From: Candidatus Binatia bacterium
Lineage (GTDB): Bacteria; Vulcanimicrobiota; Vulcanimicrobiia; Vulcanimicrobiales; Vulcanimicrobiaceae
NCBI GenBank assembly: GCA_035544215.1
Contig: DATKHY010000006.1
Coordinates: 1 to 64,000, forward strand
Direction of reading: 5' to 3'
Length of the DNA: 64,000 bases
This document shows, piece after piece, positions 2,779 to 19,713 of this stretch (position 1 is its first letter; every line of letters starts with the position of its first letter). The notes under the pieces are model-generated. The model did not search any database and was not told where the DNA came from. It worked only from the letters and a program-made list of their open reading frames with translations. A program made the translations under genes and the position numbers.

Positions 2779-4128
2779 ATGCCGAAACGTTCCGTTGCGC
2801 GCACCGTAGCCGTCGCGTTTGCGCTTGCTTTGCTCACCGCCTGCGGCGCGGGAACGCCGGCGGGGGTTTCGCCGTCGTTGTCGCAAGCAACAGCGCTGCG
2901 GGCGGCGCGGAGCGGCACCGGCGCCGGGAAGATCCAACACGTCGTCTTCATCGTCCAAGAGAACCGGAGTTTCGACAACCTCTTTCAAGGCTATCCCGGC
3001 GCGGACACGCAGTCGTGGGGCAAGAACTCGAAGGGCGACACGATTCAGCTGCGGCCTATGAGCCTCGCGCGCGCCTATGAGATCGATCACTCCGCGCACG
3101 CGATGTTCACCGCGTGCGACGGAACCGGCACCTTGCCGGGAACGAAATGCCGCATGGACTCCTTCGACAAGGAGCAGGCCTTCTTGGCGCCGCCCAACCC
3201 ACAGTTCGTCTACGTTCCGCACAACCAGTCGAAGCCGTACTTCGACATGGCGCACGAGTGGGTGCTCGCCGATCGCATGTTCCAGTCGCAGCTCGACGAG
3301 AGCTTCGTCGCACATCAGTACGTCATCGCCGCGCAGGCACAGTCGAGCGTGGATTTGCCCGACGGTAAGTGGGGCTGCGAAGGGGGATCGTCGGACATCG
3401 TCCAGATGATCACCGACTCGCGCGTGTACGGCGGATGGCAGCAGGCGTGCTTCGACTATCAGACGCTCGGCGACGAGCTAGACGGCGCGAAGCTGACGTG
3501 GCGATTCTACACCAGCAAGTACACGAGCCCCAACGGCGGCGAGTGGTCGGGATATCAGGCCGTCAAGCACATCTTCGACGGGCCCGACTGGTCGAACGTC
3601 ATCACGCCGCAGAAGAAGTTCCTCACGGACGTCGCCGCCGGCACGCTCGACAACTTCACGTGGATCACGCCGACGTGCAAGAACTCCGACCACATCGACT
3701 GCGGGAGCGCGACGGGTCCGTCGTGGGTGACGGCGCTCGTCAACGCCGTCGGCGAGAGCCAGTTCTGGGACAGCACCGCGATCTTCGTCATCTGGGACGA
3801 CTGGGGCGGCCTGTACGACCACGTCCCGCCGCCGTACCGAGGCTACGACGGCGTGGGCTTCCGCGTACCGATGCTGGTGATCTCGCCGTACGCGCGCAAG
3901 AACTTCGTGTCGCACAAACAGTACGAGACCGCCAGCGTGTTGCGCTTCGCCGAGAACCTCTTCAACTTGGGGCAGCTCTCGCAAGCGGATGCGCGGGCGA
4001 CGTCGCCCGCGCAGGATTGCTTCGATTTCACGAAGCCTCCGCGGGCGTTCGGGCCGATCAAGGCGCCGAAGGGAGCGCAGTATTTCTTGCATCAGGCGCC
4101 CGATTTTCGCATTCCCGATGAGCAGTAG
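2779..4128 (+). CDS. Secreted phosphoesterase lipoprotein (PF04185 family), paralogue 2
   Basis: This 449-residue lipoprotein has its signal cysteine at residue 22. Glu61-Asn62 lie in the signature IVQENRSFDNLF, a serine lies in DESFVAHQ, and Asp340-Asp341 lie in WDDWGG. These are the residues that bind metal and form the phospho-enzyme in AcpA. The block DGTGTLPGTKCRMD is shared with paralogues 3 and 4 and marks a closely related subgroup. The gene overlaps the following paralogue by 11 bases, so the two are almost certainly co-transcribed. Activity as a phosphatase or phospholipase C is inferred from the family. Confidence 0.87.
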   Translation: MPKRSVARTVAVAFALALLTACGAGTPAGVSPSLSQATALRAARSGTGAGKIQHVVFIVQENRSFDNLFQGYPGADTQSWGKNSKGDTIQLRPMSLARAYEIDHSAHAMFTACDGTGTLPGTKCRMDSFDKEQAFLAPPNPQFVYVPHNQSKPYFDMAHEWVLADRMFQSQLDESFVAHQYVIAAQAQSSVDLPDGKWGCEGGSSDIVQMITDSRVYGGWQQACFDYQTLGDELDGAKLTWRFYTSKYTSPNGGEWSGYQAVKHIFDGPDWSNVITPQKKFLTDVAAGTLDNFTWITPTCKNSDHIDCGSATGPSWVTALVNAVGESQFWDSTAIFVIWDDWGGLYDHVPPPYRGYDGVGFRVPMLVISPYARKNFVSHKQYETASVLRFAENLFNLGQLSQADARATSPAQDCFDFTKPPRAFGPIKAPKGAQYFLHQAPDFRIPDEQ

Positions 4129-5461
4129 CCGCATAGCCGCGCTCGCCGCGGCGTGCGTGCTGAGCGCGTGTTCCCTCGGCGGCACGGCGGTTCCGCTCGG
4201 CGAGGCGCAGATATTCGGGAGCCTGCGCGCGACCGGCGCGGGCAAGATTCGGCACGTCATCTACATCGTGCAGGAGAATCGCAGCTTCAACGACCTGTTC
4301 GAAGGCTATCCCGGCGCGTACACCGTCTCGAGCGGTAAGGATTCGCATGGCCGGACCGTCGTGCTACGCCCCTTGAGTCTCGCGTGGCGCTACGAGATCG
4401 ACCATTCCGCCAAGGCGATGTTCGCCGACTGCAACGGAACCGGGAAGCTTCCCGGCACCAAGTGCCGGATGGACGGATTCGATCGCGAGCAGACCTACGG
4501 CGCGCCGAAGAGCATCAAGTATCCGACGTACGTCTACGCGCCGCACAAAGAGACCAAGCCGTACTTCGACATGGCGCACGAGTGGGTGCTCGCCGATCGC
4601 ATGTTCCAGTCGCAGCTCGACGAGAGCTTCGTGGCGCACCAGTACATCATTGCCGCGCAGGCGCACTCCGCCGTCGACATCCCGTACGGTCCGTGGGGAT
4701 GCGTGCCTGGGCCGAGCAACAGCGTCAATACGATCTTGCACGATCGCACGTACGGTCCGCCGGAATCGGCGTGCTTCGACTATCAGACGCTGGGCGACGA
4801 GCTCGACAAGGCGGGGCTGTCGTGGCGCTTCTATTCGAGCTGGTACGGCAACCGTTCCAGCGGCGACGGCGCGATTTGGTCGAGCTATCAGGCCGTGAAA
4901 CATATCTACGAGGGGCCCGATTGGGCGAACATCGTCACCCCGCAGAGGCGATTCTTCAAAGACGTCGCCGCCGGGAAGCTCGCGAACTTCACGTGGATCA
5001 CTCCGGTCTGCGACGACTCGGATCACACGAACTGCGGGGGCGGATACGGACCATCGTGGGTCGCGGCGCTCGTCAACGCGATCGGCAAGAGCAAGTTCTG
5101 GGACTCGACCGTGATCTTCGTGCAGTGGGATGACTGGGGCGGATTGTACGATCCGGTTGCGCCGCCGTACAAAGACTACGACGGCCTGGGCTTCCGGGTT
5201 CCGTTGATCGCGATCTCCGCGTACGCTAAGCGCGACTACGTGTCGCACGAGCAGTACGAGACGGCCAGCGTGCTGCGCTTTGCGGAGGATCTCTTCGGTT
5301 TGGGGCAGCTTGCGAGAGCGGACCGGCGCGCCACGTCGCCGGCCGCCGACTTTTTCGACTTTTCGCAGAAACCGCGCACGTTCGTGCCGATCAAGGCGCC
5401 GCGCGGGCGCGGCTTTTTCCTTGCGCAGCCCCGCGATTATCGCGCGCCCGACTACGAATAA
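4118..5461 (+). CDS. Secreted phosphoesterase lipoprotein (PF04185 family), paralogue 3
   Basis: The frame is open further upstream, but the lipoprotein signal beginning MSSSRIAALAAACVLSAC fixes the start at the ATG at 4118, inside the last codons of paralogue 2. The 447-residue product keeps VQENRSFNDLF, DESFVAHQ and WDDWGG, so the metal site and nucleophile are intact. It closely resembles paralogue 2 over its whole length, which points to recent tandem duplication. A strong hairpin follows the stop and also serves the convergent S53 gene. Confidence 0.86.
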   Translation: MSSSRIAALAAACVLSACSLGGTAVPLGEAQIFGSLRATGAGKIRHVIYIVQENRSFNDLFEGYPGAYTVSSGKDSHGRTVVLRPLSLAWRYEIDHSAKAMFADCNGTGKLPGTKCRMDGFDREQTYGAPKSIKYPTYVYAPHKETKPYFDMAHEWVLADRMFQSQLDESFVAHQYIIAAQAHSAVDIPYGPWGCVPGPSNSVNTILHDRTYGPPESACFDYQTLGDELDKAGLSWRFYSSWYGNRSSGDGAIWSSYQAVKHIYEGPDWANIVTPQRRFFKDVAAGKLANFTWITPVCDDSDHTNCGGGYGPSWVAALVNAIGKSKFWDSTVIFVQWDDWGGLYDPVAPPYKDYDGLGFRVPLIAISAYAKRDYVSHEQYETASVLRFAEDLFGLGQLARADRRATSPAADFFDFSQKPRTFVPIKAPRGRGFFLAQPRDYRAPDYE

Positions 5462-5513: not shown

Positions 5514-6728
5514 TTAGAACGCGCCGATGCCCTTCGGGCTTCCCCAGCCGCCCGGACCGGAGTAGGTCTTGTCCTGATGCGTGCCCGCCGTGCAGAGGTA
5601 GCTTCCGCCGCACGACCCGTCGTTGCCGACGAGAATCGGGTGCAGGTCGCGGTTGCGGTGCCTACCGTTGAGCGACCAGAACTTCTTTCCCGCATCCTGC
5701 GAGCTCGCGTTGCCGGCGAGGCCGAAGATCGCGGCCGCCATCGGCGTCGCGGCGCTCGTGCCGCACACGCCGCCCCATCCGCCGTCATACTGATCGTAGA
5801 CGGAGACGCCCGGGCTGCATCCGGCTTCCGCCGAGACGTCCGAGTCGGTGCGCGACGTGCAGCTCGGATCGTGCTGCCATGACGGCTTGGTTTCGCCCGT
5901 GGCGCAACCGCCGCCGGCGCCGTTCCAGATCGTTTCGGTGTACGTCGAGCCGCTCTTCGCCAGCTGCGTGCCGCCGACCGAGACGACGGTGTCGAGCGCT
6001 TCCGGCGCGCCGTTCTGCCCGTAGCCGGCGTCGCCCGACCCGGCCGTGTAGACCACGCCCGGCTGATCGAAGTCCGAATTGGTGACGCAGCTGATCGAGC
6101 CGTAGCAGATCCAGCTGTTGCTGACGATGTGCGCTCCGAGCGTCACGGCCTCTAACTCTGCCGTGTCGAGGTCGGTCGAGCTCGAGCTGTTCGCCTCAAC
6201 GAGATAGATCGTGCAGAGCGGGCAGGTCGCTGAGACCATCTCGACGTCGAGTGCGATCTCAACCGACCAGCCGGTGTAGGTGGGATAGTTGCTCTGCTGT
6301 CCGCTCTGATTGTACTTCTTGAAGTTGGCCGTACCGAGTCCGAACGTGGTGCGATACGTCGAGAGGGACGTCGCCACGCTGGGATTGTCGCCCGCGTCGA
6401 TGATCGCGACGATCTGGCCCGATCCCTTGGTGATCGGCAGCTTATAGCGCGTCTGGAGATCGATCGGCGCCCAGCCGCAGGTCGCGCCGGTGCATTCCGG
6501 CTGGATTCCGCGCTGGGTGAGAGCGAGGCAGGTAGGCCGGCCGGTCACCTGTGGGCAAACAGGTCGCGCCTGGCCCTTGGCGAGCCAGTCCGGCACGATG
6601 CCGTGCGCTTGAGTCAGCGCAGATTGACCGGTTGAGCCGGCGGCCGGCATAGAAGAGCCGCCCGAACTACAAGCGGCGATGGCGAGCGCCGCGATCAGCG
6701 GCGCCACAAGTTTTATGGTTCCGTTCAC
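5514..6728 (-). CDS. S53 (sedolisin) family peptidase lipoprotein, copy A
   Basis: This 404-residue protein has a lipobox ending at Cys20 and a sedolisin catalytic domain from about residue 90. The active-site set is present: Glu157 and Asp161 (E-I-A-L-D), the oxyanion Asp233 in SGDAGYG and Ser325 in CGTSAATP. The C-terminus has a D-I/L...G...GWGSPKG calcium-site region. The roughly 70 residues between the lipid anchor and the catalytic domain are too short for the usual kumamolisin pro-domain. The GTG at 6728 is chosen over the ATG at 6746 because AAGGAG lies six bases before it, as in copies B and C. It is the last of four tandem copies. Confidence 0.88.
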   Translation of the reverse strand: MNGTIKLVAPLIAALAIAACSSGGSSMPAAGSTGQSALTQAHGIVPDWLAKGQARPVCPQVTGRPTCLALTQRGIQPECTGATCGWAPIDLQTRYKLPITKGSGQIVAIIDAGDNPSVATSLSTYRTTFGLGTANFKKYNQSGQQSNYPTYTGWSVEIALDVEMVSATCPLCTIYLVEANSSSSTDLDTAELEAVTLGAHIVSNSWICYGSISCVTNSDFDQPGVVYTAGSGDAGYGQNGAPEALDTVVSVGGTQLAKSGSTYTETIWNGAGGGCATGETKPSWQHDPSCTSRTDSDVSAEAGCSPGVSVYDQYDGGWGGVCGTSAATPMAAAIFGLAGNASSQDAGKKFWSLNGRHRNRDLHPILVGNDGSCGGSYLCTAGTHQDKTYSGPGGWGSPKGIGAF

Positions 6729-6828
6729 AAACTGCTCCTTATTCATCCGTGGGTTTGGGTAAAGGGCGTTGCCTTTGGCCGGCTTTCGAACCTGCCGCCC
6801 GCGTTGCTCCTGGTCATCGTCTCTAACG

Positions 6829-6861
6829 AAAAAAGAGGCGGGTGCATCGTGCACCCGCCTC
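6829..6861 (-). terminator. Rho-independent terminator after S53 copy B
   Basis: An 11-base perfect stem (6835-6845 with 6851-6861) is followed, reading the minus strand, by a run of T complementary to the A-run at 6829-6834. It lies 29 bases past the stop of copy B and upstream of copy A. This is the clearest intrinsic terminator in the window. Confidence 0.85.
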
Positions 6862-6889
6862 GAGGTTTTAGGAAAGGCTTCGCCGCGCT

Positions 6890-8107
6890 TTAGTACGCGC
6901 CGATGCCCTTCGGCGTTCCCCAGCCCGTCGGACCGGCGTAGGTCTTGAACTGACCCGTGCCGTCCGTGCAGAGGTAGCTCCCGCCGCACGAGCCGTCGTT
7001 GCCGGTCTTGATGTCGTGGAGGTCGCGCCGGAGCTTCCGGGCTCTCAGGGTCCAGAACCCCTTACCGCTCTGGCGCGTGCTGGCGTTGCCGGCGAGGCCG
7101 AAGACGGCGGCATTAAGCGGCGAAGCCGCGCTGGTGCCGCAGACGCCGGTCCAGCCGCCCGACAGCGTGTCGTACTCCGCCACGCCCGGCGAGCAGCCGG
7201 CCTCGGAGGAGACGTCGGAGTCGGTGCGCGACGTGCAGCCCGGATCGTGCTGCCACGACGGCTTGGTTTCGCCGGTGGCGCAACCGCCGCCGGCGCCGTT
7301 CCAGGCCGATTCGGTGTAGGTCGATCCGCTCTTGGCGAGTTGCGTGCCGCCGACCGAGATGACCGAGTCGAGGGCTTCCGGCGCGCCGTTCTGTCCGTAG
7401 CCGGCGTCACCCGACGCGGCGAGATATGCAACGCCCGACGTATCGAAGTCCGAATTGTTGACGCAATTGATCGAGCCGTAGCAGATCCAGCTGTTGCTGA
7501 TGATGTGCGCGCCCAGCTTCACGGCTTCGACCTCAGCCGTGTCGAGGTCGGTCGAGCTCGCGCTGTTCGCCTCGACGAGATAGATCGTGCAGAGCGGGCA
7601 GGCCGCCGAGACCATGTCGATGTCGAGATCGATCTCGAGGTGCCAGCCGGTGTACGTCGGATAGTTGCTCTGCTGTCCGTTTTGGTTGTACTTCTTGAAG
7701 CTGGCCGTTCCGAGGCCGAACTGCGTGCGATACTTCGCGAGGTCCGTCGCGGCGTCGGGATGATCGCCGGCGTCGACGATCGCCACGATCTGGCCGGATC
7801 CCTTGGTGATCGGCAGTTTGTAGACCGTTTCGAGATCCTTGGGCGTGAAGCCGCAGGTGCTCGAGGGACTGCACAGCGGTTGGGGTCCGTTCTTGATCAG
7901 CGCGAGGCAGGTCGGCTGTCCGACGACCTGCGGGCAAGCCGCGTGGGCTTCGTTCTTCGCAAGCCACTCCGGCATAACTCGGGCCTGCGTGAACACGGAT
8001 TGACCGGGCACAGCCGAGGTGCTCGGAATGTTCGAGCCGCCCGAGCTACAGGCAGCGATGGCGAGCGCCGCAATCAGCGGCGCCATGAGTTTTATGGTTC
8101 CGTTCAC
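6890..8107 (-). CDS. S53 (sedolisin) family peptidase lipoprotein, copy B
   Basis: This 405-residue paralogue of copy A begins at a GTG with AAGGAG five bases upstream. The signal MNGTIKLMAPLIAALAIAAC is nearly identical to that of copy A. The catalytic residues are kept: E-I-D-L-D for Glu and Asp, ASGDAGYG for the oxyanion Asp and CGTSAASP for Ser. It shares with copy A several cysteines absent from copies C and D, such as the one in WICYG and the C-S-P segment before the serine, so A and B form one subgroup. It probably acts as an acid-adapted, lipid-anchored endopeptidase outside the membrane. Confidence 0.88.
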   Translation of the reverse strand: MNGTIKLMAPLIAALAIAACSSGGSNIPSTSAVPGQSVFTQARVMPEWLAKNEAHAACPQVVGQPTCLALIKNGPQPLCSPSSTCGFTPKDLETVYKLPITKGSGQIVAIVDAGDHPDAATDLAKYRTQFGLGTASFKKYNQNGQQSNYPTYTGWHLEIDLDIDMVSAACPLCTIYLVEANSASSTDLDTAEVEAVKLGAHIISNSWICYGSINCVNNSDFDTSGVAYLAASGDAGYGQNGAPEALDSVISVGGTQLAKSGSTYTESAWNGAGGGCATGETKPSWQHDPGCTSRTDSDVSSEAGCSPGVAEYDTLSGGWTGVCGTSAASPLNAAVFGLAGNASTRQSGKGFWTLRARKLRRDLHDIKTGNDGSCGGSYLCTDGTGQFKTYAGPTGWGTPKGIGAY

Positions 8108-8186
8108 AAGTGCTCCTTAGTAGTTGGTGGGATCTGGGTCCGGCTTCTGTTCACCCTGAGAGTTTCCTGACCTGCCACTAAAGTAA

Positions 8187-8214
8187 GAGGGCCGACCGTT
8201 TTCGGTCGACCCTC
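8187..8214 (-). terminator. Hairpin after S53 copy C
   Basis: GAGGG-C-CGACC pairs with GGTCG-A-CCCTC around a short loop, giving ten base pairs with one mismatch. It sits 25 bases past the stop of copy C and before the leader of copy B. The T-rich tail is weak. Confidence 0.6.
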
Positions 8215-8238
8215 GTGGCCTACCAATTCTAGCGAGCG

Positions 8239-9426
8239 CTAGAACGCACCGATGCCGTTGGGTGAACCCCACCCGCCGGGGCCTGAGTAGGTCTTGTACT
8301 GTTTGGTCCCCGCGACGCAGAGGTAGCCGCCTGCGAGGCTCGGCGGGCAATGGATCACTCCGCCGAGCGTGATGTCGTGGAGGGTGTGCTTAAGCTTCCT
8401 GGCCGAGAGCGTCCAGAACGGCTTACCGCTCTGACGGCTGCTTGCGTTGCCCGCAAGGCCGTAGACGCCGCCCATCAGCGGCGAGGAGACGCTCGTGCCG
8501 CCGATGACGATCCAGCCGCCGTAGGCGGTATCGTATTCGGCGACGTTCGACGCAACCGCCGAGATGTCGTTGGCAGTGCGCTCGGTGCACTTCGGATCGT
8601 GCTGCCACGACGGCTTGGTCTCGACCGAGCAGCCGCCGCCGCTGAAGGGCCAGATCTGCTCCTTGTACGTCGAGCCTTGCTTCGAAAGCTCGGTTCCGCC
8701 GACGGAGACGACGGTGTCGTAGTCCATCGGGTCCTGCGTGCCGTAGCCGTTGTCGCCGGCGCTCGCGAGGTACGTTACGCCGGATGCGTTGAACGCGCTG
8801 CCCGACGAGCTTCCGCCGCCGCCGCCCCAGCTGTTGCTGATGACGTGCGCGCCGAGCTTGACGGCCTCTTTCTCGGCCGCGTAAAGATTGGTCGTCGTGT
8901 TGTCGTTGGCTTCGATCAGATAGATCGTGCAGAGCGGACACGACGCCGAGACCATCTCGATGTCGAGGTCTTCCTCGACGCCCCAGTTTTTATTGACCTG
9001 CGGGTAGTGACTCTGCTGGCCGCTCTGGTTGTATTTGGTAAAGCTGGCCGTTCCGAGCCCGAAGTTCGTGCGGTACTTCGCGAGATCGGATGCGGCGGTG
9101 GGATTGTCGAAGGCGTCGACGATCGCAACGATTTGGCCTGACCCCTTCGTGATCGGCAGCCGGTACGCCGTCTGGAAATCGACCGGCGCCAAGCCCGCCA
9201 CGCCGGGTTGAACCTTGTTCATCGCCAGGACATCGCAGTTCATGTAGCCGGGGCGCGTGTCCGCGCAGATGCGACGATAGCCGGCCGCCTCGAGGGTCGA
9301 GTTCTGTAGCGCGCTGCCGGTCTGGCCGCCGGTCGCGGGAACGCTGGACGATAATCCGCCCGCGTTGCACGCCGCGAGGGCGACCGCTATGACGAGCGGC
9401 GCCGCCAGTTTGATAGTTCCGTTCAC
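8239..9426 (-). CDS. S53 (sedolisin) family peptidase lipoprotein, copy C
   Basis: This 395-residue lipoprotein starts at a GTG with TAAGGAG in front and has the lipobox ALAAC. Glu and Asp lie in VEEDLDIEM, the oxyanion Asp in SAGDNGYG and the nucleophile in GGTSVSSP. A glycine-rich ISNSWGGGGG replaces the cysteine-bearing loop of copies A and B. The C-terminal calcium-site segment DITLGG and GWGSPNGIGAF are present. As in the other copies there is no large pro-domain. It and copy D form the second subgroup. Confidence 0.88.
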   Translation of the reverse strand: MNGTIKLAAPLVIAVALAACNAGGLSSSVPATGGQTGSALQNSTLEAAGYRRICADTRPGYMNCDVLAMNKVQPGVAGLAPVDFQTAYRLPITKGSGQIVAIVDAFDNPTAASDLAKYRTNFGLGTASFTKYNQSGQQSHYPQVNKNWGVEEDLDIEMVSASCPLCTIYLIEANDNTTTNLYAAEKEAVKLGAHVISNSWGGGGGSSSGSAFNASGVTYLASAGDNGYGTQDPMDYDTVVSVGGTELSKQGSTYKEQIWPFSGGGCSVETKPSWQHDPKCTERTANDISAVASNVAEYDTAYGGWIVIGGTSVSSPLMGGVYGLAGNASSRQSGKPFWTLSARKLKHTLHDITLGGVIHCPPSLAGGYLCVAGTKQYKTYSGPGGWGSPNGIGAF

Positions 9427-9520
9427 AATAGCTCCTTACTGTCTGTTCTTAAGTTTTCGGGGAAGGAGGCTTACCTTGCGAGTCGTCCGGCTACCTCCTC
9501 GCCTTACAAACGTAAGAAAG

Positions 9521-9546
9521 CGGGGCGGCGTTTTGGCGCCGCCCCG
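9521..9546 (-). terminator. Terminator-like hairpin after S53 copy D
   Basis: A ten-base perfect stem, CGGGGCGGCG with CGCCGCCCCG, encloses the loop TTTTGG. It lies 27 bases past the stop of copy D. On the minus strand it is followed by CTTTCTTAC, a moderately T-rich tail. Confidence 0.7.
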
Positions 9547-9573
9547 TCATCTCGAGCTCCGTTAACCTAGGTA

Positions 9574-10773
9574 CTAGAAGGCGCCAATGCCGTTGGGCGT
9601 GCCCCAGCCGGCCGGTCCCGAGTAGGTCTTGTACTCGCCCGTCCCCGCCACGCACAGGTAGCTGCCGGACAGGCTCGGCGGGCAATTGACGACGCCGCCC
9701 GAGTTGATGTAGTGCAGATACCTTCTGCGGTTCTTGCTGGTGAGAGTCCAGAACGGTTTGCCGCCCTGGTGCGAGCTTGCGTTGCCGGCCAGGCCGAACA
9801 CGCCGCCGAGCAGCGGCGACGAGACGCTGGTGCCGCCGATGACGATCCAGCCGCAGTATGGGAACGTGTCGTACTCGGCGACGTTCTCTGCCACCGCAGA
9901 GACGTCGTTACCGGTGCGCTCGCTGCATTTCGGATCGTGCTGCCACGAGGGCTTGGTCACGACCGAGCGGCCGGCGCCGCTGTCCGGCCAGACCTTTTCG
10001 GTGTACGTCGAGCCGACCTTGGAGAGCTGCGTGCCGCCCACCGACACGACCGTGTCGTAGTCGACGGGATCCTGCATGCCGTAACCGCCGTCGCCGGCGC
10101 TCGCGAGATACATCACGCCCTTCTTGGCGAAGTCGCCGTAGGACGCGCTTCCGCCGCCGCCGCCGTAACTGTTGCTGATGACGTGCGCGCCCATCTTCGC
10201 GGCCCGCGCGACGGCCGCATAGAGATCGTTGCCGTTGTTCGAGTTGGCCTCGAACAGCCAGATCGTGCAGAGCGGATTGGAGGCCGAGACCATGTCGACG
10301 TCGAGGTCGATCTCGACGCACCAGCCGAGATTGCTGCCCGCACACTTTGACGGGTAGTTCTTCTTTTGCCCCAACTGGTTGAACTTGCTGACCTTGGCCG
10401 CGCCGAGGCCGAAGTTCTTACGATAGACTTTGAGATCCGACGCGACGTTCGGGTTGTCGAACGCATCGACGATCGCGACGACCTGTCCCGCACCCTTTGT
10501 GATCGGCAGTTTGTAGGCCGCTTGGAAATCGGCCGGCGCGAGTCCGGGGACACCGGGCTCGGCGTTGGTCTTGAGCAGCACGTCGCAGTTCATGTAGCCG
10601 GGGCACGCGTCGGCGCACAGGCGTTTATAGCCGGTTGCTTCGAGGTGCGAGGACGGCAAGTGGCCGACGGATTGCGCGGCGGTGCCGGGCACGCCGAACG
10701 AGCCGCCGGCGTTGCACGCCGCGACTCCGAGCGCCACGAGAAGCGACGCCGCAAGTTTTGTGGGTCCGTTCAC
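9574..10773 (-). CDS. S53 (sedolisin) family peptidase lipoprotein, copy D
   Basis: The frame stays open far upstream, but that stretch is antisense to the phosphoesterase gene at 10870. The lipoprotein signal VNGPTKLAASLLVALGVAAC, matching the other copies, sets the start at the GTG at 10773 and gives 399 residues. Glu and Asp lie in VEIDLDVDM, the oxyanion Asp in SAGDGGYG and Ser in GGTSVSSP. One extra cysteine pair appears around SKCAGSNLGWC. The ribosome site here is weak (AGAAG), unlike the AAGGAG of the other copies, so expression may differ. Confidence 0.87.
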   Translation of the reverse strand: MNGPTKLAASLLVALGVAACNAGGSFGVPGTAAQSVGHLPSSHLEATGYKRLCADACPGYMNCDVLLKTNAEPGVPGLAPADFQAAYKLPITKGAGQVVAIVDAFDNPNVASDLKVYRKNFGLGAAKVSKFNQLGQKKNYPSKCAGSNLGWCVEIDLDVDMVSASNPLCTIWLFEANSNNGNDLYAAVARAAKMGAHVISNSYGGGGGSASYGDFAKKGVMYLASAGDGGYGMQDPVDYDTVVSVGGTQLSKVGSTYTEKVWPDSGAGRSVVTKPSWQHDPKCSERTGNDVSAVAENVAEYDTFPYCGWIVIGGTSVSSPLLGGVFGLAGNASSHQGGKPFWTLTSKNRRRYLHYINSGGVVNCPPSLSGSYLCVAGTGEYKTYSGPAGWGTPNGIGAF

Positions 10774-10869
10774 GAGAAGCTTCTTTTGCAAACGTTTCGC
10801 GAGGTCTGGGAAAGCGCTGGTTCCCGAAGGGAATCGGGCGGGCCTGGTGGCATTGCTGCGCGTATCGTG

Positions 10870-12213
10870 ATGCGGCGAATCAGCATGCTCGCGGCCTGCG
10901 CGGCCGCGGCCGTGAGCCTCGGCTCGTGTTCGATCGGATCGCCGGTCGCACCGGCGTTGCTGCCGCGCGCGGACGACGTGCTCGGCGCACTCGGCGGCAC
11001 CGGCGCCGGCAAGATCAAACACGTCGTCTGGATCGTGCAAGAGAACCGCAGCTTCGACGACATGTTCCAAGGCTATCCCGGTGCGGATACGCAATCGTGG
11101 GGCAAGACGTCCAAGGGACAGCGCATCAAACTCGCGCCGGTTAGTCTGGCGGCCCAGTACGAGATCGACCACTCGGCGCACGCAATGTTCGAAGCGTGCG
11201 ATGGAACGGGCAAGCTGCCGGGGACGAAGTGCCGCATGGACTCTTTCGACAAGGAGCAGACGTACGGCGGTCCGCGCAACGGACAATACGTCTACGTGCC
11301 GCATAGCGAGACGAAGCCGCTGTTCGACATGGCGCACGAATGGGTGTTGGCCGACCGGATGTTCGCGTCGCAGCTGGACGAGAGCTTCGTCGCGCATCAA
11401 TACATCATCGCGGCGCAGGCGCGTTCGAGCGTCAACGTTCCGGACTCGTTCTGGGGCTGCGAGGGATACCCGGGAGACGAGGTCGCGACGATCACGCACC
11501 AGCGGACGTACGGCGGGGCTCAGCAGCCATGCTTTAACTACAAGACGCTCGGCGACGAACTCGATGCCGCGGGGCTGCCGTGGCGCTTCTACACGAGCTC
11601 GTACCAGAAACCCGTGAGCGGCTTCTGGTCCGGCTATCAGGCGGTGCGACACATCTTCCACGGCCCAGACTGGCACAAAGACGTCATCATGCCGCAGAAG
11701 CGCTTCCTGAACGACGTCGCCGCCGGACGGCTCGCGAGCTTCACCTGGATCACGCCGCTCTGCCCGGACTCGGACCATCCCATCTGCGGCGGCGGCTACG
11801 GGCCGTCGTGGGTAACGTCGCTGGTCGACGCGATCGGCAAGAGCAAGTTCTGGAACAGCACCGCCATCTTCGTGCAGTGGGACGACTGGGGCGGCTTCTA
11901 CGATCACGTTCCGCCGCCGTATCGCGGCTACGATGGCCTTGGATTCCGCGTTGGGCTGCTGGTGATCTCGCCGTACGCACGCAAAGACCGCGTCATACAC
12001 ACCCAGTATGAGACGGCGAGCGTCTTGCGCTTCGCCGAAGACCTCTTCGGCTTAGCTCAGCTGACCGACGCCGACCATCGTGCGACGTCGCCCGCCGCCG
12101 ACTGCTTCGACTTCTCCGCACCGCCGCGCAAGTTCGTCCCGATCAACTCGCCCAAAGGACCGGACTTCTTTTTGACCCAGCCCAACGACGGCACGATCCC
12201 CGACGAACAGTAG
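10870..12213 (+). CDS. Secreted phosphoesterase lipoprotein (PF04185 family), paralogue 4
   Basis: This 447-residue lipoprotein has the signal MRRISMLAACAAAAVSLGSC. The signature IVQENRSFDDMF, the serine segment DESFVAHQ and WDDWGG are all intact. It is closest to paralogues 2 and 3 and shares DGTGKLPGTKCRMD and the ending IPDEQ with paralogue 2. It stands alone, divergent from S53 copy D across 96 bases. The S53 block therefore lies inside what was probably one phosphoesterase array. Confidence 0.86.
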   Translation: MRRISMLAACAAAAVSLGSCSIGSPVAPALLPRADDVLGALGGTGAGKIKHVVWIVQENRSFDDMFQGYPGADTQSWGKTSKGQRIKLAPVSLAAQYEIDHSAHAMFEACDGTGKLPGTKCRMDSFDKEQTYGGPRNGQYVYVPHSETKPLFDMAHEWVLADRMFASQLDESFVAHQYIIAAQARSSVNVPDSFWGCEGYPGDEVATITHQRTYGGAQQPCFNYKTLGDELDAAGLPWRFYTSSYQKPVSGFWSGYQAVRHIFHGPDWHKDVIMPQKRFLNDVAAGRLASFTWITPLCPDSDHPICGGGYGPSWVTSLVDAIGKSKFWNSTAIFVQWDDWGGFYDHVPPPYRGYDGLGFRVGLLVISPYARKDRVIHTQYETASVLRFAEDLFGLAQLTDADHRATSPAADCFDFSAPPRKFVPINSPKGPDFFLTQPNDGTIPDEQ

Positions 12214-12816: not shown

Positions 12817-14310
12817 TTACTCGGTGTCGACGGGGAGGCCCGATGGTTTCTGCTTGAGGAAAAACGATTCCGAATATTTCGATCTGATCTTGTGAAACAG
12901 ACGCGGAGGCTGGCTGAAGTTGAAGGCATTGCCGATGCTAGCTGCGCGCACGTCCGGCGACGGCGGCAGCGTTCCGAGGCTCCAGTTGTCCTGGATGAAC
13001 TTGAGGACGCTCGCCGTCTCGTACTGCGTGTGCTCGACGTGTGGTTGGACGTACGGTGAAACGATCAGCAACGGCAATCGGAATCCCAGCCCGCCCTGAT
13101 TGTCTTGGAACGGCGGCTTGACGTGATCGTAGAAACCGCCCGGATCGTCCCACAGGATGACGATCGCAGAGGTGTCCCAGTACTTGCTCTGACCGATCGC
13201 ATTTACGACCGATGCAACCCATGATGGCCCGTCATCCTTCGGAATGGGTTTCTTGCTGACGATCTTGTATTCAGCGGGATGGTCGGAGTTGAATGCGTCC
13301 GGAGTGACCCATGCCACGGATGGAAGTTTGCCGTTCTTGATGTCGTTGAAGATAAAGTTCGGGCTCCTCGTGACGTTCGTCTGCCATTCCGGTCCCTCGC
13401 GAACGGCCTTGATCGCGTCGAACGCGCTCCAGATGCCGCCGTTCTTTTTTGGGGCGGTCGTATAATATTTCCACGAGATTTTGCTGGCGTCGAGCTGGTC
13501 GCGAATCGTCTCGTACGTGAAGCACGGAAACGGCCCTACGGCCTGATAGTATTTGCCGCTTGTGGTTATCAGCGATGTGACCGTTCCTGGGGGCGAGTCC
13601 TCGCAGCCCCACGGCATGTTGAACGGATTGTCGATGATGCTGTTGTCGCCGTAATACGAGGGATCGTAGTTGACGACGGTCCCGCCGGCGATCAGGTCTT
13701 GGTGCCCGGTGAAACTCTCGCTGCCCTGCGTGTCGAACATGTTATCTGCCAGCACGTATTGCTTGGCAATGTCCCAGTACGGCTTAATGTCGTTGGGATC
13801 GACGTACTGGTACGCGTACGTGCACTCTGCCTGCGGCCCCTTACCGGTCGCACCGAACTTGACGAGATCAAACCCGTCCATGCTCCCGTTGTCGAGCTCC
13901 GTGAGGTAGCCGCCATAGTGGTGGTCTAGGTCGTTGTCGTGACCGAAGTTGTTCGGTGGGAAACCGTCACCGACCAAGTTGACCTTGGTGAGCTGCACGG
14001 TCGTGGGGTACGTGATGACCGGTTGGCCTTTTCTCGCGCACGATTGCTGGATCGGGGCCGGCATCGCTGCCGCCTGTCCGCTCGTCGCGCCGTTCGCGCC
14101 CGGATACCTCGCGAAAAGATTATCGAAGCTACGGTTCTCCTGGATCACGACGATCACGTGCTGGATCGGAGTGCTTCCGCTGTGGCCGCGCGCTCCAGGG
14201 ATCAATGCGCCGCCCGCTCCGCGTGAAGATAAGCCTCCGCCACATGCTGCGACGGCTACGGCGGCGAACGCCAAGAGAGCGAACCAGCGGCTTGAAACGC
14301 GTGCCGGCAC
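12817..14310 (-). CDS. Secreted phosphoesterase lipoprotein (PF04185 family), paralogue 6
   Basis: The product has 497 residues, starts at the GTG at 14310 and has the lipobox VAAC. The start lies seven bases after the stop of paralogue 5, with GGAG inside the upstream gene's end. VIQENRSFDNLF, SESFTGHQ and WDDPGGFYDHV give the metal and nucleophile residues; note Pro in place of the Trp of WDDWGG. It belongs to a second subgroup, longer than paralogues 1-4, with an insert TSGQAAAMPAPIQQSC near residue 80. It is the last gene of the operon led by a type III polyketide synthase, so its substrate may be linked to that product. Confidence 0.86.
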   Translation of the reverse strand: MPARVSSRWFALLAFAAVAVAACGGGLSSRGAGGALIPGARGHSGSTPIQHVIVVIQENRSFDNLFARYPGANGATSGQAAAMPAPIQQSCARKGQPVITYPTTVQLTKVNLVGDGFPPNNFGHDNDLDHHYGGYLTELDNGSMDGFDLVKFGATGKGPQAECTYAYQYVDPNDIKPYWDIAKQYVLADNMFDTQGSESFTGHQDLIAGGTVVNYDPSYYGDNSIIDNPFNMPWGCEDSPPGTVTSLITTSGKYYQAVGPFPCFTYETIRDQLDASKISWKYYTTAPKKNGGIWSAFDAIKAVREGPEWQTNVTRSPNFIFNDIKNGKLPSVAWVTPDAFNSDHPAEYKIVSKKPIPKDDGPSWVASVVNAIGQSKYWDTSAIVILWDDPGGFYDHVKPPFQDNQGGLGFRLPLLIVSPYVQPHVEHTQYETASVLKFIQDNWSLGTLPPSPDVRAASIGNAFNFSQPPRLFHKIRSKYSESFFLKQKPSGLPVDTE

Positions 14311-14317
14311 GGCTGGA

Positions 14318-15799
14318 TTACTCCGTGTCGACGGGGAGACCAGACGGCCGTTGCTTGAGGAAGAACGACTCGGAGTGCGTCGACTGGATCTTGTGAAACG
14401 CGCGCGGCGGCTTGCTGAAGTCGAAGACGTTGCCGATGCTCGCGGCGCGGACGTCCGGCGTGGCGGGCAACGTTCCAAGGTTCCAGTTGTCCTGGATGAA
14501 CTTCAAAACGCTCGCGGACTCATACTGGGTGTGTTCGACGTGCGCCTGAACGTAAGGCGAGACTATGAGCATCGGGATGCGGAAGCCGAGACCGCCCTGG
14601 TTGTCCAAGAACGGCGGCTTGACGTGGTCGTAGAAACCGCCCGGGTCGTCCCACAGGACTACGATGGCGGACGAGTTCCAGTACTTCTTGCTCGTGCCGA
14701 TCGCGTTCACGACCGATGCGACCCATGAAGGGCCGTTATCGACCGGAACCAACTTTCTCCCCACGTGCATGTACTCGGCCGGATGATCGGAGTTGTAGGC
14801 GTCCGGCGTGATCCACGCGACGGAAGGCAGCTTGCCGTTCTTGATGTCGTTGAAGATGACGTTTGGGTTCGTCGTAACGTTCGTGTGCCACTCCGAGCCT
14901 TCCCTGACTTTTTTGATCGCGTCGAACGCGCTCCAGATGCCCGCGCCGCCCTTGTTCGACCCGACGGTGTAGTACTTCCACGAGATCTTGGCGGCGTCGA
15001 GCTGATCGCGGACAGTACCGTACTTGAGGCACGGAAACGGTCCGGCGCCCATGAGGTATTGGCCGCCGGTCGTTATGAGCGTCGTCACCGTACCCGGCGG
15101 CGCGTCGCAGCCCCACGGCATGTTGAAGGGATTGTCGATAATGCTGTTATCGCCGTATTTTGAAATCTTGTAGTTGACGGCCGTGCCGCCGGCGATCAGG
15201 TCTTGATGTCCGGTGAAGCTCGAGCTGCCCTGCGTGTCGAACATCTCGTCGGCCAGTACGTACTGGTTTGCGATGTCCCAGTACGGCTTGACGTCGTTGG
15301 GATCGACGTATTGATATGCATAAGTGCACTCGGCCTGCGGCCCGCTACCGTCGGCGCCGAAGAGCGCGAGGTCGTACCCATCCATGTTGCCGTTGTCGTA
15401 TTCGGCGAGGAAGCCCCCGTAGATGTGATCGAGGTCGTTGTCCGCTCCGAAGTTGTTCTTGAATCCGGCTCCGACCAAGGACACCTTGGTGAGCTGCACA
15501 GTCGTGGGGTACGTGATGACCGGTTGGCCTTTTCTCGCACACGACTGCTGGATCGGCGTGGGCATCGGCGCCGCCTGACCGCTGGTCGCGCCGTTTGCGC
15601 CGGGATAGGTCGCGAAGAGGTTGTCGAAGCTGCGGTTTTCTTGGATCACGACGATCACGTGCCGGATCTTCGTGCTTCCGCTATGCCCGCGCACACCAGG
15701 AATCAATCCGCTGCCGGCTCCGCCTGAAGAAAAGCCCCCGCCGCACGCCGCGATGGCCGCGCCCGCGAAGAGCACGAGCGCCCACAACCGCGGGCTCAC
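14318..15799 (-). CDS. Secreted phosphoesterase lipoprotein (PF04185 family), paralogue 5
   Basis: This 493-residue lipoprotein (lipobox IAAC) starts at a GTG that overlaps the TGA of the sulfotransferase gene by four bases, so the two are translationally coupled. VIQENRSFDNLF, SSSFTGHQ and WDDPGGFYDHV are kept. It is closely similar to paralogue 6 and both end in SGLPVDTE, so they are tandem duplicates. Its place between a sulfotransferase and another phosphoesterase suggests extracellular phosphate-ester or phospholipid cleavage tied to the operon's product. Confidence 0.87.
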   Translation of the reverse strand: MSPRLWALVLFAGAAIAACGGGFSSGGAGSGLIPGVRGHSGSTKIRHVIVVIQENRSFDNLFATYPGANGATSGQAAPMPTPIQQSCARKGQPVITYPTTVQLTKVSLVGAGFKNNFGADNDLDHIYGGFLAEYDNGNMDGYDLALFGADGSGPQAECTYAYQYVDPNDVKPYWDIANQYVLADEMFDTQGSSSFTGHQDLIAGGTAVNYKISKYGDNSIIDNPFNMPWGCDAPPGTVTTLITTGGQYLMGAGPFPCLKYGTVRDQLDAAKISWKYYTVGSNKGGAGIWSAFDAIKKVREGSEWHTNVTTNPNVIFNDIKNGKLPSVAWITPDAYNSDHPAEYMHVGRKLVPVDNGPSWVASVVNAIGTSKKYWNSSAIVVLWDDPGGFYDHVKPPFLDNQGGLGFRIPMLIVSPYVQAHVEHTQYESASVLKFIQDNWNLGTLPATPDVRAASIGNVFDFSKPPRAFHKIQSTHSESFFLKQRPSGLPVDTE

Positions 15800-16947
15800 G
15801 AGACGGCCACCTTCTGCGCGATGGCGTCGACGTCGTAGCCGAACTTCGAGGCGACGCCGGACGTCGCCGAGACGATCGCGGACATCTGGGCCGCGTCGAA
15901 CTTCGGCTTGTAGTAATCCGGGAACGAGAGCTTCTGTCCGTACGCCTCGCGCGTCGCGGCGAAGCTCTGCGGGTCGAGCTCGGCGTGAGCGATGATGCGG
16001 TCGATGGTCGGGAGCGAGTCGGCGCAGAGGTCCTCATAGCGCACGGTGCACACGCGCCGCGCCAGCTCGGGATCGCTCTCGAGCTGGCGCGCGACGAAGC
16101 CATAGACGTAGGCCCAGTAGCGCGCCCGCGACTCGGCGACATGCCCGGAATCGAAGAGCGCCCGGATTTCCTTGAGTTCCTCGGGATTCCCGACGTTGGC
16201 CATCACCTGGTGCGGGCCAAACTCGTGGTGTCCGGTGAGCTCGATGATCTCGATCTGGCGTGGGTCGCTCTGCTCGAGCTCGGCCCAGATGCGGTCCTGC
16301 TTGATCAGCGACGCGACGTGGTCCACCGGATTGCGGATGTAGAGGAGGAAGCGCGCGTCGGGGAAGAGCTTGCGCAGGTACTGCATGCGCACGACGCACA
16401 TGATCGCCTTGCTCACGTAGCGCGTGCGCCCTCGCACCAGCGCGAGCTTGCGCAGATGTTCGTCGTAGAAGCGTTCGAACGAGCGGTTCGACGTGGTGCC
16501 GTCGAGCACGCTGTAGTTCGCCTCGTCGTGGATGTGGGGGAAGAAGTGCTCCCACAGGATCTCCTCGCCCATCTCGGCGCTGTCGCGCGTCACCTCGATC
16601 CGATCGCGATGGATGCGCGGAACCGGCTTGCGCATAGCGTCGACGGGGATGCGCGGGAAGACCTTGTTCCACACGTACGGCATGTAAGGCATCAGGAAGT
16701 CGGCGTACTTGTGCGTCACGACGTCCGGATGCTCGCTGAGCATCTGCAGCGTAATCGTCGTGCCGGCCCGCGGAAGGCCGCAGATATAGACCGGGCGATC
16801 CACCTTTGTCGCCGCGAGCCGTCCGCGCAGGAAGCCGGATTCGAGGTTACCCAGGCCGACGAAGAACGGCGCGCCGGCGTGTACGGTGCGGACGCTCCAA
16901 TAGAACGGCGCAGGCACGGAGAACTTCTGCGGTGTCGATGTACTCAT
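15796..16947 (-). CDS. PAPS-dependent sulfotransferase
   Basis: This 383-residue protein has the 5'-phosphosulfate loop GLPRAGTT near residue 60 and the 3'-phosphate-binding segment LLYIRNPVDHVASL near residue 205. Both are hallmarks of 3'-phosphoadenylylsulfate-using sulfotransferases. There is no signal peptide, so it acts in the cytoplasm. GGGAGCT directly precedes the ATG at 16947. It lies 20 bases after the type III polyketide synthase and overlaps the next gene by four bases. The natural inference is that it sulfates a hydroxyl of the polyketide; the acceptor cannot be read from the sequence. Confidence 0.85.
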   Translation of the reverse strand: MSTSTPQKFSVPAPFYWSVRTVHAGAPFFVGLGNLESGFLRGRLAATKVDRPVYICGLPRAGTTITLQMLSEHPDVVTHKYADFLMPYMPYVWNKVFPRIPVDAMRKPVPRIHRDRIEVTRDSAEMGEEILWEHFFPHIHDEANYSVLDGTTSNRSFERFYDEHLRKLALVRGRTRYVSKAIMCVVRMQYLRKLFPDARFLLYIRNPVDHVASLIKQDRIWAELEQSDPRQIEIIELTGHHEFGPHQVMANVGNPEELKEIRALFDSGHVAESRARYWAYVYGFVARQLESDPELARRVCTVRYEDLCADSLPTIDRIIAHAELDPQSFAATREAYGQKLSFPDYYKPKFDAAQMSAIVSATSGVASKFGYDVDAIAQKVAVS

Positions 16948-16967
16948 AGCTCCCGTCGATTGTGACG

Positions 16968-18215
16968 CTATAGTTTTTCGAAAAGGGCGCCGATCACGGT
17001 TAAACCCGGACCGAATGCCATGCTCAGGACCTTCGCTCCCCGAGGGATAGCCTGGGATTCCACGATCAGCTTCCAGATGTGCGGCGCCGTCGCGGAGGCC
17101 ATGTTTCCGTTTTCGAACAAGACTTTCCGGCTCAGCTCGATCTGCGACTCCTCGATCCCGAGACGGCTGCGGATCTGGTTGAGGATCGCCGGTCCGCCCG
17201 GGTGAATCGCGAAGACCATCCCCGCCTTTTCGCGCTCGAAGTCGAGGCCGACCTGGCCGCAGATCGATTCGACGAAGTCCTTGATCGAGTCGCGGATCAT
17301 GAACGGCACTCGCTTCGAGAGCGACATGTCGAACTGCAGGGGACCGGGCCGCAGCGTCATCTCGGGCAGCGAGTCCGGCAGAATGTACTCGTCGATCGCC
17401 AGAATGCGCAGCCCGCTCTTACCGCTCTTCGCGAACTCCGACTGCGGATATGCCGCGTACTTGATGAAACCGTCCGCGAACAGCGTGGACGTCACGAAGT
17501 TGTCGGGCTCGTCGCCGAGCAAATCGAAGTGCAGCGAGAGAAACTCGGTGTGAACGAGGTCGACGCGCCTCTTGCGCTTCGGCAGCGAGACGTGCGAGGA
17601 GCCAACGAGCCCTACGGCCGTGCGGATCGCCGGGAACGCGCCGTAACACCCCATGTGATACGAGTGCGTGACTCCGACGCCGAGCCAGCCGCGGCGCGAC
17701 AGGAAACTCTGCACCGGGCTGGGCGAGAGATATCCCGAGCAGCTCACGTGGATGACGTCGTCGGGCGGAGGCGCGGCCTCGTCGCGATAGACCCGAGCGA
17801 ACACGTCGTACGCGATCTCCTCGAAGAGGCTCATGCGCGCGTCGAGCGGCTCGCCGGTGCCGGTGCGCAGGTTTCCGAACCGCCGGATGGGCTCGTATTC
17901 GTTGTCGGGATCCGGCGTGACGAAGCGCGACGTCAACACGCTGACCTGCCTCTGCGCGATGTGCTCGGACGACGCGCCGTAGCGCGCCATGCGTTCCTGC
18001 AGCGTGTGCGCGATGCGGTCGCGCTCCGCAGCCGACGTCACGCCGCGCGACGCGCACTGCGCGAGCGTCATGAAGTGCGCCTGGATGACCTTCAGCTCGT
18101 CTTGCGCGCGCGGACTCGTAACGCCGATCGTTTCGAAATCGGACAGAACGACCGGAACGGCCGCGAGGCGCGGCCGTGCAGCGATCATCCCAGACACTTT
18201 CTCTAGCGTGCGCAT
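16968..18215 (-). CDS. Type III polyketide synthase (chalcone/stilbene synthase family)
   Basis: This 415-residue enzyme carries the full catalytic triad: Cys190 in HMGCYGAF, His338 in IHPGGPAIL and Asn371 in ENGNMASA. The C-terminal FGPGLTV loop is also present. The His-Asn distance of 33 equals that of plant chalcone synthase. Such enzymes condense an acyl-CoA with several malonyl-CoA units into pyrones, resorcinols or phloroglucinols. The 101 bases upstream should hold the operon promoter, but I see no convincing one. The start at 18215 lacks a good ribosome site; the ATG at 18188 is an alternative. It heads a four-gene operon. Confidence 0.92.
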   Translation of the reverse strand: MRTLEKVSGMIAARPRLAAVPVVLSDFETIGVTSPRAQDELKVIQAHFMTLAQCASRGVTSAAERDRIAHTLQERMARYGASSEHIAQRQVSVLTSRFVTPDPDNEYEPIRRFGNLRTGTGEPLDARMSLFEEIAYDVFARVYRDEAAPPPDDVIHVSCSGYLSPSPVQSFLSRRGWLGVGVTHSYHMGCYGAFPAIRTAVGLVGSSHVSLPKRKRRVDLVHTEFLSLHFDLLGDEPDNFVTSTLFADGFIKYAAYPQSEFAKSGKSGLRILAIDEYILPDSLPEMTLRPGPLQFDMSLSKRVPFMIRDSIKDFVESICGQVGLDFEREKAGMVFAIHPGGPAILNQIRSRLGIEESQIELSRKVLFENGNMASATAPHIWKLIVESQAIPRGAKVLSMAFGPGLTVIGALFEKL

Positions 18216-18316
18216 ATCGAACCAAGTCCGGCGTTCGCCAAACGCGGCGCCGTTCCATTCGAGCCGAGAGTGTTATGCGTTGTCGTTTTCAAGACCATCG
18301 GTAATCGTGGTTATTT

Positions 18317-19651
18317 TTACTCGTCATCCACCGGTAGATTCGAGGGCGACTGGTTAAGAAAATATACTTTAGAGTACTTTCCCGCAATGGGGACGTACTG
18401 CCGCGGTTGTTGCGTAAAGTCAAAAAAATCGTTAACGAAATCGGGGGAGGTTGCGTCGGTCGTGCCCAGGCGGGGCAGGTTCCAGTTGTCCTCGACGAAG
18501 CGCACGATGCTGCCGAGCTCGTAGCGGTTGTGCGATATGTAGCCGCGCTTCGCGAACGGCGAGACGACGATCATTGGAACCCGGAAGCCCAGCCCGCCGA
18601 AGCGGTGGCGTCCCGGCGGCGGAACGTGGTCGTACCAGCCGCCCCAGTCGTCCCACACGATGACGATCGCGGTGGTCTGCCACGCGGGGCTCTCGCCGAT
18701 CGCGTTGACCACCTGCGCGATCCACGACGGCCCCGTGTCGCTGTTGTCCCCGGGGTGATCGGAGTTTTGGTAATCGGGGATCACCCACGACACGGCCGGA
18801 AGCGTGTTGCGTGAGATGTCGGTGAACACCTTGGTTTCAGGCGAGGCCTGATTCGTGTTCCACTCCGAGCCGTAGCGGACGGCTTTGATCGCGTCGAACG
18901 CATTCCAAAGATCTCCGCCGAAGCTTTGTCCCACGGTCGGCGCGTAGTAGCGCCACGACAGTTGTTTCGCATCGAGCACGTCGCGCAGCGTCGAATACGT
19001 GAGGCACGGGAACGGACCTTGGTCGTGATACTGCTGCCACTGGTTGTTGGCGGTGATCAGCGACGTCCTCGTGCCGGGCGGGGCGTCGCAGCCCCACGGC
19101 GCCGACGACGGGAAGTCGATGATGTTGTGCTGGCTATCGACCTCCGTTCCGCCGCGGATCAGATCTTGGTGGGCCGTGAAGCTGCCGCTGCCCTCGGTCT
19201 GGAACGTGTGGTCGGCGAGTACGTAGCGCTTGGCCAGGTCCCAATAAGGCTTGATCTGCGCGGGCTTGACGTATGCGTAGACGTACGTGCCGGGGATCTT
19301 GCCGATCGGTACGAGGTCGAAGTGGTTCATGCGCCCGTGGTTGTAGTCTTGCACCCAGGGCGCGTAACCGTTGTGGGGCGAGACCGGGCTCTCGAGATTG
19401 CTCTCGTGCAGCCGGAGCGTGCCGTTGTGCGTCTTGCCGACGGTCGTCCCGTCCGCTCCCGGAAAGGTCGCGAAGAGATTGTCGAACGTGCGGTTCTCCT
19501 GAATGAGGATGACTATGTGGGTGAAGTACTTCCCCTTCTTAGCCGGCGGCGGGGGCGAGAAGGGGGCGGGAGGGGTCGCGCCGCCGCCGCCGCCCCCACA
19601 GCTGCTGAGGACGACGGACAGCAGCGCGCTAATAAGAAGAACGGCTCGCAT
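18317..19651 (-). CDS. Secreted phosphoesterase lipoprotein (PF04185 family), paralogue 7
   Basis: The product has 444 residues from the ATG at 19651, with the signal MRAVLLISALLSVVLSSC and then a glycine and proline-rich linker. An ATG at 19687 is possible but has no usable spacing to a ribosome site. LIQENRTFDNLF, GSFTAHQ and WDDWGG supply the expected catalytic residues. It is the most diverged of the seven and lies behind the promoter side of the polyketide synthase operon, in the same direction but 101 bases apart. Read-through into the operon is possible. Confidence 0.86.
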   Translation of the reverse strand: MRAVLLISALLSVVLSSCGGGGGGATPPAPFSPPPPAKKGKYFTHIVILIQENRTFDNLFATFPGADGTTVGKTHNGTLRLHESNLESPVSPHNGYAPWVQDYNHGRMNHFDLVPIGKIPGTYVYAYVKPAQIKPYWDLAKRYVLADHTFQTEGSGSFTAHQDLIRGGTEVDSQHNIIDFPSSAPWGCDAPPGTRTSLITANNQWQQYHDQGPFPCLTYSTLRDVLDAKQLSWRYYAPTVGQSFGGDLWNAFDAIKAVRYGSEWNTNQASPETKVFTDISRNTLPAVSWVIPDYQNSDHPGDNSDTGPSWIAQVVNAIGESPAWQTTAIVIVWDDWGGWYDHVPPPGRHRFGGLGFRVPMIVVSPFAKRGYISHNRYELGSIVRFVEDNWNLPRLGTTDATSPDFVNDFFDFTQQPRQYVPIAGKYSKVYFLNQSPSNLPVDDE

Positions 19652-19713
19652 ACTGGCCTTTAGTGTATCATCGGGCGCGGGCGCCATCCCTTCCCTGACG
19701 GGCGGTCGCTAAA

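What the first reader, a model, noticed from the sequence alone, without database searches (positions are those of the whole stretch)
12817..18215. Operon of type III polyketide synthase, sulfotransferase and two lipoprotein phosphoesterases
Four minus-strand genes are packed with gaps or overlaps of 20, -4 and 7 bases. The synthase keeps Cys190, His338 and Asn371, the sulfotransferase keeps both PAPS-binding motifs, and the two phosphoesterases keep their metal residues. I know of no described pathway with this gene order. A reasonable model is a sulfated alkylpyrone or alkylresorcinol lipid, with the outer-face phosphoesterases cleaving phospholipid or a phosphate ester linked to it. Phenolic lipids are known to replace phospholipids in Azotobacter cysts.
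Basis: partly seen in the sequence, partly recalled or inferred. Interest (0 to 1): 0.85.

Follow-up and report, generated by a model that had tools for sequence, protein, structure and literature searches.

The report
Sulfated phenolic-lipid operon with lipoprotein phosphoesterases
An uncultured soil bacterium carries a conserved gene pair that probably makes a fatty phenol or pyrone and adds sulfate to it; such pairs are known elsewhere, and the neighbouring phosphoesterases belong to an unusually large family of about 50 genes in this genome and are a looser attachment.

Summary
In detail: four minus-strand genes at 12817-18215 with gaps of 20, -4 and 7 bases and intact catalytic residues. 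The host is a member of Candidatus Eremiobacterota (Vulcanimicrobiota). The type III synthase belongs to the Azotobacter ArsB/ArsC family. It and the PAPS-type sulfotransferase form a strict unit: of 148 genomes of the phylum, 19 have both, adjacent, and none has only one. The phosphoesterases are different. In four genomes of two sister genera the downstream slot holds another lipoprotein, a methyltransferase or a regulator. The own genome has 51 matches to this phosphoesterase family. The residue that sets ring closure in ArsB (Trp) and ArsC (Gly) is Leu in every copy from this phylum, so resorcinol versus pyrone cannot be read off. A sulfated alkylresorcinol operon (adp, Streptomyces) is already published, so 'no described pathway' is only partly right. 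Best reading: the pair makes a sulfated long-chain resorcinol or pyrone lipid; in this genus, co-expressed lipoprotein phosphoesterases act outside the cytoplasm, role unproven. A new variant of a known kind, of moderate interest.

The parts
16968..18215 (-). type III polyketide synthase, ArsB/ArsC family (415 aa); Cys190-His338-Asn371; Leu288 at the ring-closure position
15796..16947 (-). PAPS-dependent sulfotransferase (383 aa), PF13469; strictly linked to the synthase
14318..15799 (-). PE1: lipoprotein phosphoesterase PF04185 (AcpA-like, Ser nucleophile); GTG start overlaps the sulfotransferase stop by 4 nt
12817..14310 (-). PE2: lipoprotein phosphoesterase PF04185, recent duplicate of PE1 (81% identical)
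18317..19687 (-).
18216..18316 (-). PE0-synthase gap with a conserved TAACC-N2-GATTA block just after the PE0 stop (18302-18313), possible promoter element; only 2 exact copies in the genome

Best explanation
The synthase extends a long-chain acyl starter with malonyl-CoA to a tri- or tetraketide and closes it to an alkylpyrone or alkylresorcinol (inferred from the ArsB/ArsC family). The sulfotransferase then moves sulfate from PAPS to the ring hydroxyl, giving an amphiphilic, negatively charged sulfated lipid that ends up in the cell envelope (inferred). The synthase-sulfotransferase pair is the core unit (shown by co-occurrence and adjacency). In the window's genus, lipoprotein phosphoesterases of the acid phosphatase/phospholipase C family are encoded with it, mostly translationally coupled; they sit on the outer side of the cytoplasmic membrane or in the outer membrane, where they probably cleave phosphate esters, perhaps of phospholipids (inferred). 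They are accessory, not part of the core pathway.
For: Synthase and sulfotransferase both present and adjacent in 19 of 148 genomes, one without the other in none. Same chromosomal place, beside divergent Sua5/YrdC and S41 peptidase genes, in three genera. Synthase best PDB matches are ArsC wild type and G284W (3vs8/3vs9, E about 1e-90) and its triad is intact. Sulfotransferase motifs conserved; the weak model's best matches are PAPS sulfotransferases. APS kinase overlaps an ATP-sulfurylase-like gene at C3:337 kb, so PAPS can be made. In G082 an ICMT-family gene overlaps the sulfotransferase end by 4 nt, and its relatives sit beside the other type III synthases of this phylum. Published precedent: adp operon, sulfated adipostatins (PMC12135136). 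In all 14 genus members readable past the sulfotransferase, the next gene is a co-directional PF04185 gene; its start overlaps or nearly touches the sulfotransferase stop in most.
Against: No product or substrate has been measured. Leu288 matches neither the Trp of ArsB nor the Gly of ArsC. No fatty-acid synthase gene beside the pair, unlike the ars operon. The sulfotransferase's closest relatives found outside the phylum (42% identity, Rhodobacterales plasmids) sit beside arylsulfotransferases and not beside a synthase, so this sulfotransferase family is not tied to type III synthases in general. The downstream phosphoesterase is replaced in sister genera.
Confidence: 0.65

Rival explanations
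1. The phosphoesterases are mandatory partners: they work on the same lipid, for example removing phospholipid so that the sulfated lipid can replace it, or cleaving a phosphate-linked precursor.
For: PE0 orthologues lie next to the synthase in all 15 genus members, and in genus g14 other co-directional PF04185 genes lie upstream; most synthase-linked copies fall in one subfamily that holds only 9 of 47 own copies. The downstream copy is close to or overlaps the sulfotransferase in the genus. Phenolic lipids replace phospholipids in Azotobacter cysts (title and abstract of PMC4824345).
Against: G082 has no phosphoesterase near the pair and G111 only one on the other strand from a different subfamily. 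The downstream gene in the genus comes from different subclades (turnover). About 50 copies per genome occur in many tandem arrays unrelated to the pair; genera g26, g29 and g32 have 42-62 first-look candidates without the pair.
Confidence: 0.2
2. The phosphoesterases are general phosphorus scavengers of acid, phosphorus-poor soil that spread by tandem duplication and happen to sit in this operon in one genus.
For: 51 matches in the genome; 46 of 47 copies examined keep catalytic residues and 38 of 47 have a lipobox; PE1/PE2 are a duplication confined to the window's closest relatives; arrays such as C7:184-193 kb with 7 copies.
Against: Co-directional flanking copies, mostly tightly coupled, persist over a whole genus.
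Confidence: 0.4
3. The sulfotransferase acts not on the synthase product but on a separate acceptor (glycolipid, peptide tyrosine, polysaccharide), or uses sulfonation to activate a leaving group as in curacin and olefin synthases.
For: Fold matches include tyrosylprotein sulfotransferases, mycobacterial Stf proteins and the CurM/Ols domains (low-confidence model); relatives on plasmids occur without a synthase.
Against: Perfect co-occurrence and adjacency with the synthase; ring products of type III synthases carry no beta-hydroxyl to be eliminated (general knowledge).
Confidence: 0.2

Closest known systems
adp operon of Streptomyces davaonensis (adpPKS-adpST-adpP1-P3; sulfated adipostatins; PMC12135136)
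   Same: type III synthase and PAPS sulfotransferase in one operon; expected product a sulfated long-chain resorcinol-type lipid
Azotobacter vinelandii ArsB/ArsC (ars operon; alkylresorcinols and alkylpyrones of cysts)
   Same: same synthase family (about 40% identity), same catalytic triad
   Different: Leu at the ring-closure position instead of Trp/Gly; no fatty-acid synthase genes adjacent; sulfotransferase added
AcpA acid phosphatase / phosphocholine-specific phospholipase C family (PF04185)
   Same: metal-binding and nucleophile residues conserved
   Different: predicted membrane lipoproteins; far below NCBIfam cut-offs for both named families; about 50 copies in one genome
srsB/bpsB-type methyltransferase next to a type III synthase
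   Same: G082 carries such an ICMT gene in the same operon; the own genome has the ordinary pair at C1:137.8-139.1 kb
   Different: not present in the window's operon

Membership tests
ArsB/ArsC-type type III polyketide synthase | Cys-His-Asn catalytic triad | tested here: met
   Cys190, His338, Asn371, invariant in all Eremiobacterota copies
ArsB/ArsC-type type III polyketide synthase | groups with ArsB/ArsC rather than with the other type III synthases | tested here: inconclusive
   best PDB match 3vs8/3vs9 at E 1e-90, next 3e-16; in the tree it is a monophyletic lineage inside the set collected with this query, which has few members of other type III groups
ArsB/ArsC-type type III polyketide synthase | Trp (resorcinol) or Gly (pyrone) at ArsB281/ArsC284 | tested here: not met
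   Leu288 or its equivalent in the Eremiobacterota copies aligned; rule from PMC6274091
adp-type sulfated alkylresorcinol operon | type III synthase adjacent to a PAPS sulfotransferase | tested here: met
   19 of 19 genomes
adp-type sulfated alkylresorcinol operon | dedicated PAPS cassette in the operon | tested here: not met
   single APS kinase at C3:337 kb, operon on C6
adp-type sulfated alkylresorcinol operon | sulfated resorcinol product | not testable with these tools
   needs chemistry
PAPS-dependent sulfotransferase (PF13469) | 5'-PSB and 3'-PB motifs, family score above cut-off | tested here: met
   82.5 bits against cut-off 27; motifs invariant or nearly so
PF04185 phosphoesterase | E-N, Ser/Thr nucleophile, D-H, D-D metal residues | tested here: met
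   all three operon copies; 46 of 47 own copies, two of these with a conservative Asp/Glu change
phosphocholine-specific phospholipase C (TIGR03396) | score above the curated cut-off | tested here: not met
   100-120 bits against 580
Burkholderia-type acid phosphatase (TIGR03397) | score above the curated cut-off | tested here: not met
   122-150 bits against 363
ars operon of Azotobacter | type I fatty-acid synthase genes beside the synthases | tested here: not met
   neighbours are phosphoesterases, sulfotransferase, YrdC, S41 peptidase

The most novel reading that the evidence does not exclude
A phosphorus-sparing envelope switch: lipoprotein phospholipases outside the cytoplasm strip phosphate head groups from phospholipids while the coupled synthase-sulfotransferase pair supplies a sulfated phenolic lipid as the new negatively charged membrane lipid, with a Leu-type ring-closure mode that differs from both ArsB and ArsC.
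Probability: 0.1. Interest if true: 0.75.

Novelty: new variant of a known kind. Interest (0 to 1): 0.42.

Why it matters
It predicts a sulfated phenolic lipid in a mostly uncultured soil phylum from a perfectly linked gene pair, and offers a natural Leu variant at the residue that decides resorcinol versus pyrone in this synthase family. The side result, about 50 mostly intact phosphoesterases, most of them predicted lipoproteins, in a 3.2 Mb genome, raises a question about phosphorus use in soil.

Tried and rejected
Other synthase-sulfotransferase pairs outside the phylum: none among 67 outgroup synthase loci by 5'-PSB motif; only one weak partial match among 21 whole outgroup genomes with the sulfotransferase profile; none in viral contigs. 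An arylsulfotransferase partner in Eremiobacterota, suggested by the Rhodobacterales neighbours: absent from 12 genomes. A regulon for the TAACC-N2-GATTA motif: only 2 exact copies in the genome. Sigma-70 promoter scan: nothing found. Short upstream ORF in the PE0-synthase gap: not conserved in length (read by eye). A protein alignment with wrong coordinates failed and was replaced by the script. Literature on polyketides or phosphatases in Eremiobacterota: nothing relevant seen among the listed titles.

Full report
The synthase (16968-18215), sulfotransferase (15796-16947) and two PF04185 phosphoesterases (14318-15799, 12817-14310) lie on the minus strand with gaps of 20, -4 and 7 bases. Pfam assigns the expected families.

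The host belongs to Candidatus Eremiobacterota (Vulcanimicrobiota in NCBI). The closest synthase, 93% identical, is from a MAG of that name. The window lies in a 9-contig, 3.23 Mb genome, 97% complete.

The core of the feature is the synthase-sulfotransferase pair. In 148 genomes drawn from the phylum, 19 carry a close homologue of the synthase and the same 19 carry the sulfotransferase; in all 19 the two lie side by side (G081 is cut by a contig end inside the sulfotransferase). They span three genera (g1, g14, g22) and sit at the same place, beside divergent YrdC and S41-peptidase genes. Gaps between the two genes are 5-26 nt, with 54 nt in G106.

The synthase is of the ArsB/ArsC kind: PDB entries 3vs8 and 3vs9 match at E about 1e-90 and the next at 3e-16. 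The Eremiobacterota synthases form one clade with a long stem. In Azotobacter, Trp281 in ArsB favours resorcinols and Gly284 in ArsC favours pyrones (PMC6274091). The aligned residue is Leu288 in the window and Leu in every Eremiobacterota copy aligned; nearly all other collected members have Trp, Azotobacter ArsC has Gly, four Burkholderiaceae have Glu and one Beijerinckia paralogue has Leu. So the ring type cannot be predicted.

The sulfotransferase is conserved: the window's copy is 63-90% identical to 15 orthologues. A model with low mean confidence (pLDDT 66.6) matches mycobacterial STF9 and tyrosylprotein sulfotransferases; this supports the fold class only. APS kinase (L180:4046-4657) overlaps a 381-aa gene at L180:4654-5799 that I read as ATP sulfurylase from its sequence, without a profile search.

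The phosphoesterases need a different reading. The genome has 51 PF04185 matches, 7 of them in this window; only 2 of 14 well-known control genomes have any. Of 47 own copies examined, 46 keep the catalytic residues, two of them with a conservative Asp/Glu change (44 have Ser and 2 Thr as nucleophile), and 38 have a lipobox. Other genera of the family show similar expansions without the pair (first-look candidates: g26 49, g29 42, g32 62).

Even so, the association within the genus is real. All 15 genus members whose locus was read, the window included, have a PE0-like copy just upstream of the synthase on the same strand, and all 14 with sequence past the sulfotransferase have a co-directional PF04185 gene next. 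Its start overlaps or nearly touches the sulfotransferase stop in most of the sequences read (GTGA, ATGA, TAATG, TAGTG); in L005 and L006 a gap of about 20 bases with a GGAGGAG-like ribosome site separates them. The downstream copies come from different subclades, which means replacement over time. PE1 and PE2 are a recent duplication (81% identical).

In the sister genera the downstream slot differs. G054 and G106 have a small lipoprotein without Pfam match, G082 an ICMT methyltransferase (E 5e-21), and G111 a GGDEF/TPR regulator. G082 also keeps a second ICMT copy beside its other type III synthase. Related ICMT genes lie in most loci of the other type III synthases of the phylum that were fetched. 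By established knowledge of SrsB and BpsB such enzymes methylate alkylresorcinols or alkylpyrones, which supports a lipid product of this kind.

Outside the phylum, the best sulfotransferase relative found is on a Paroceanicella plasmid (42% over 339 residues). It and three other Rhodobacterales relatives sit next to arylsulfotransferase-family genes, not next to a synthase. Twelve Eremiobacterota genomes lack that family, so here the sulfate ester is more likely an end product than a donor.

Compared with what is known, the pair works like adpPKS-adpST of Streptomyces davaonensis, which makes mono- and di-sulfated adipostatins (PMC12135136). It lacks the PAPS cassette of that operon. I therefore class it as a new variant of a known kind. 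The phosphoesterase link, and any role in replacing phospholipids, remains an untested idea.

Shown here: gene content, conservation, linkage, residue states, paralogue numbers. Inferred: product class, sulfation of that product, envelope location of the lipid, and any role of the phosphoesterases.

Noticed in passing
whole genome G000; window 1408-2640, 2788-4122, 4118-5428, 10857-12213 besides PE0-PE2: 51 PF04185 phosphoesterase matches in a 3.2 Mb genome, many in tandem arrays (for example C7:184-193 kb, 7 copies); one apparently dead copy at C3:437.7 kb. Related genera also show large expansions.
   Followed up: partly
window 5517-10653, minus strand: Four tandem secreted subtilase/sedolisin-like proteins (two are 54-56% identical to a third), recurring beside the phosphoesterases in relatives.
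   Followed up: no
L151:9847-11156 (G000 C1:137.8-139.1 kb): A second type III synthase with an ICMT methyltransferase directly behind it, an ordinary bpsA-bpsB-like pair common in the phylum.
   Followed up: partly
L142:12140-12709: In G082 an ICMT methyltransferase overlaps the sulfotransferase stop by 4 nt; the genome has a second copy beside its other synthase.
   Followed up: yes
L183, L184, L185, L187: Rhodobacterales plasmids pair a related PAPS sulfotransferase with a PF14269 arylsulfotransferase (family tested in two of the four, annotation in the others), suggesting a two-step sulfate relay.
   Followed up: partly
window 18302-18313: Conserved TAACC-N2-GATTA block just after the PE0 stop codon in genus members; the only other exact copy in the genome is at C1:20923, about 1.5 kb from another phosphoesterase gene.
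   Followed up: partly
L140:12199-12723 and L141:8174-8794: Small lipoproteins of alike sequence without any Pfam match behind the sulfotransferase in genus g14.
   Followed up: no
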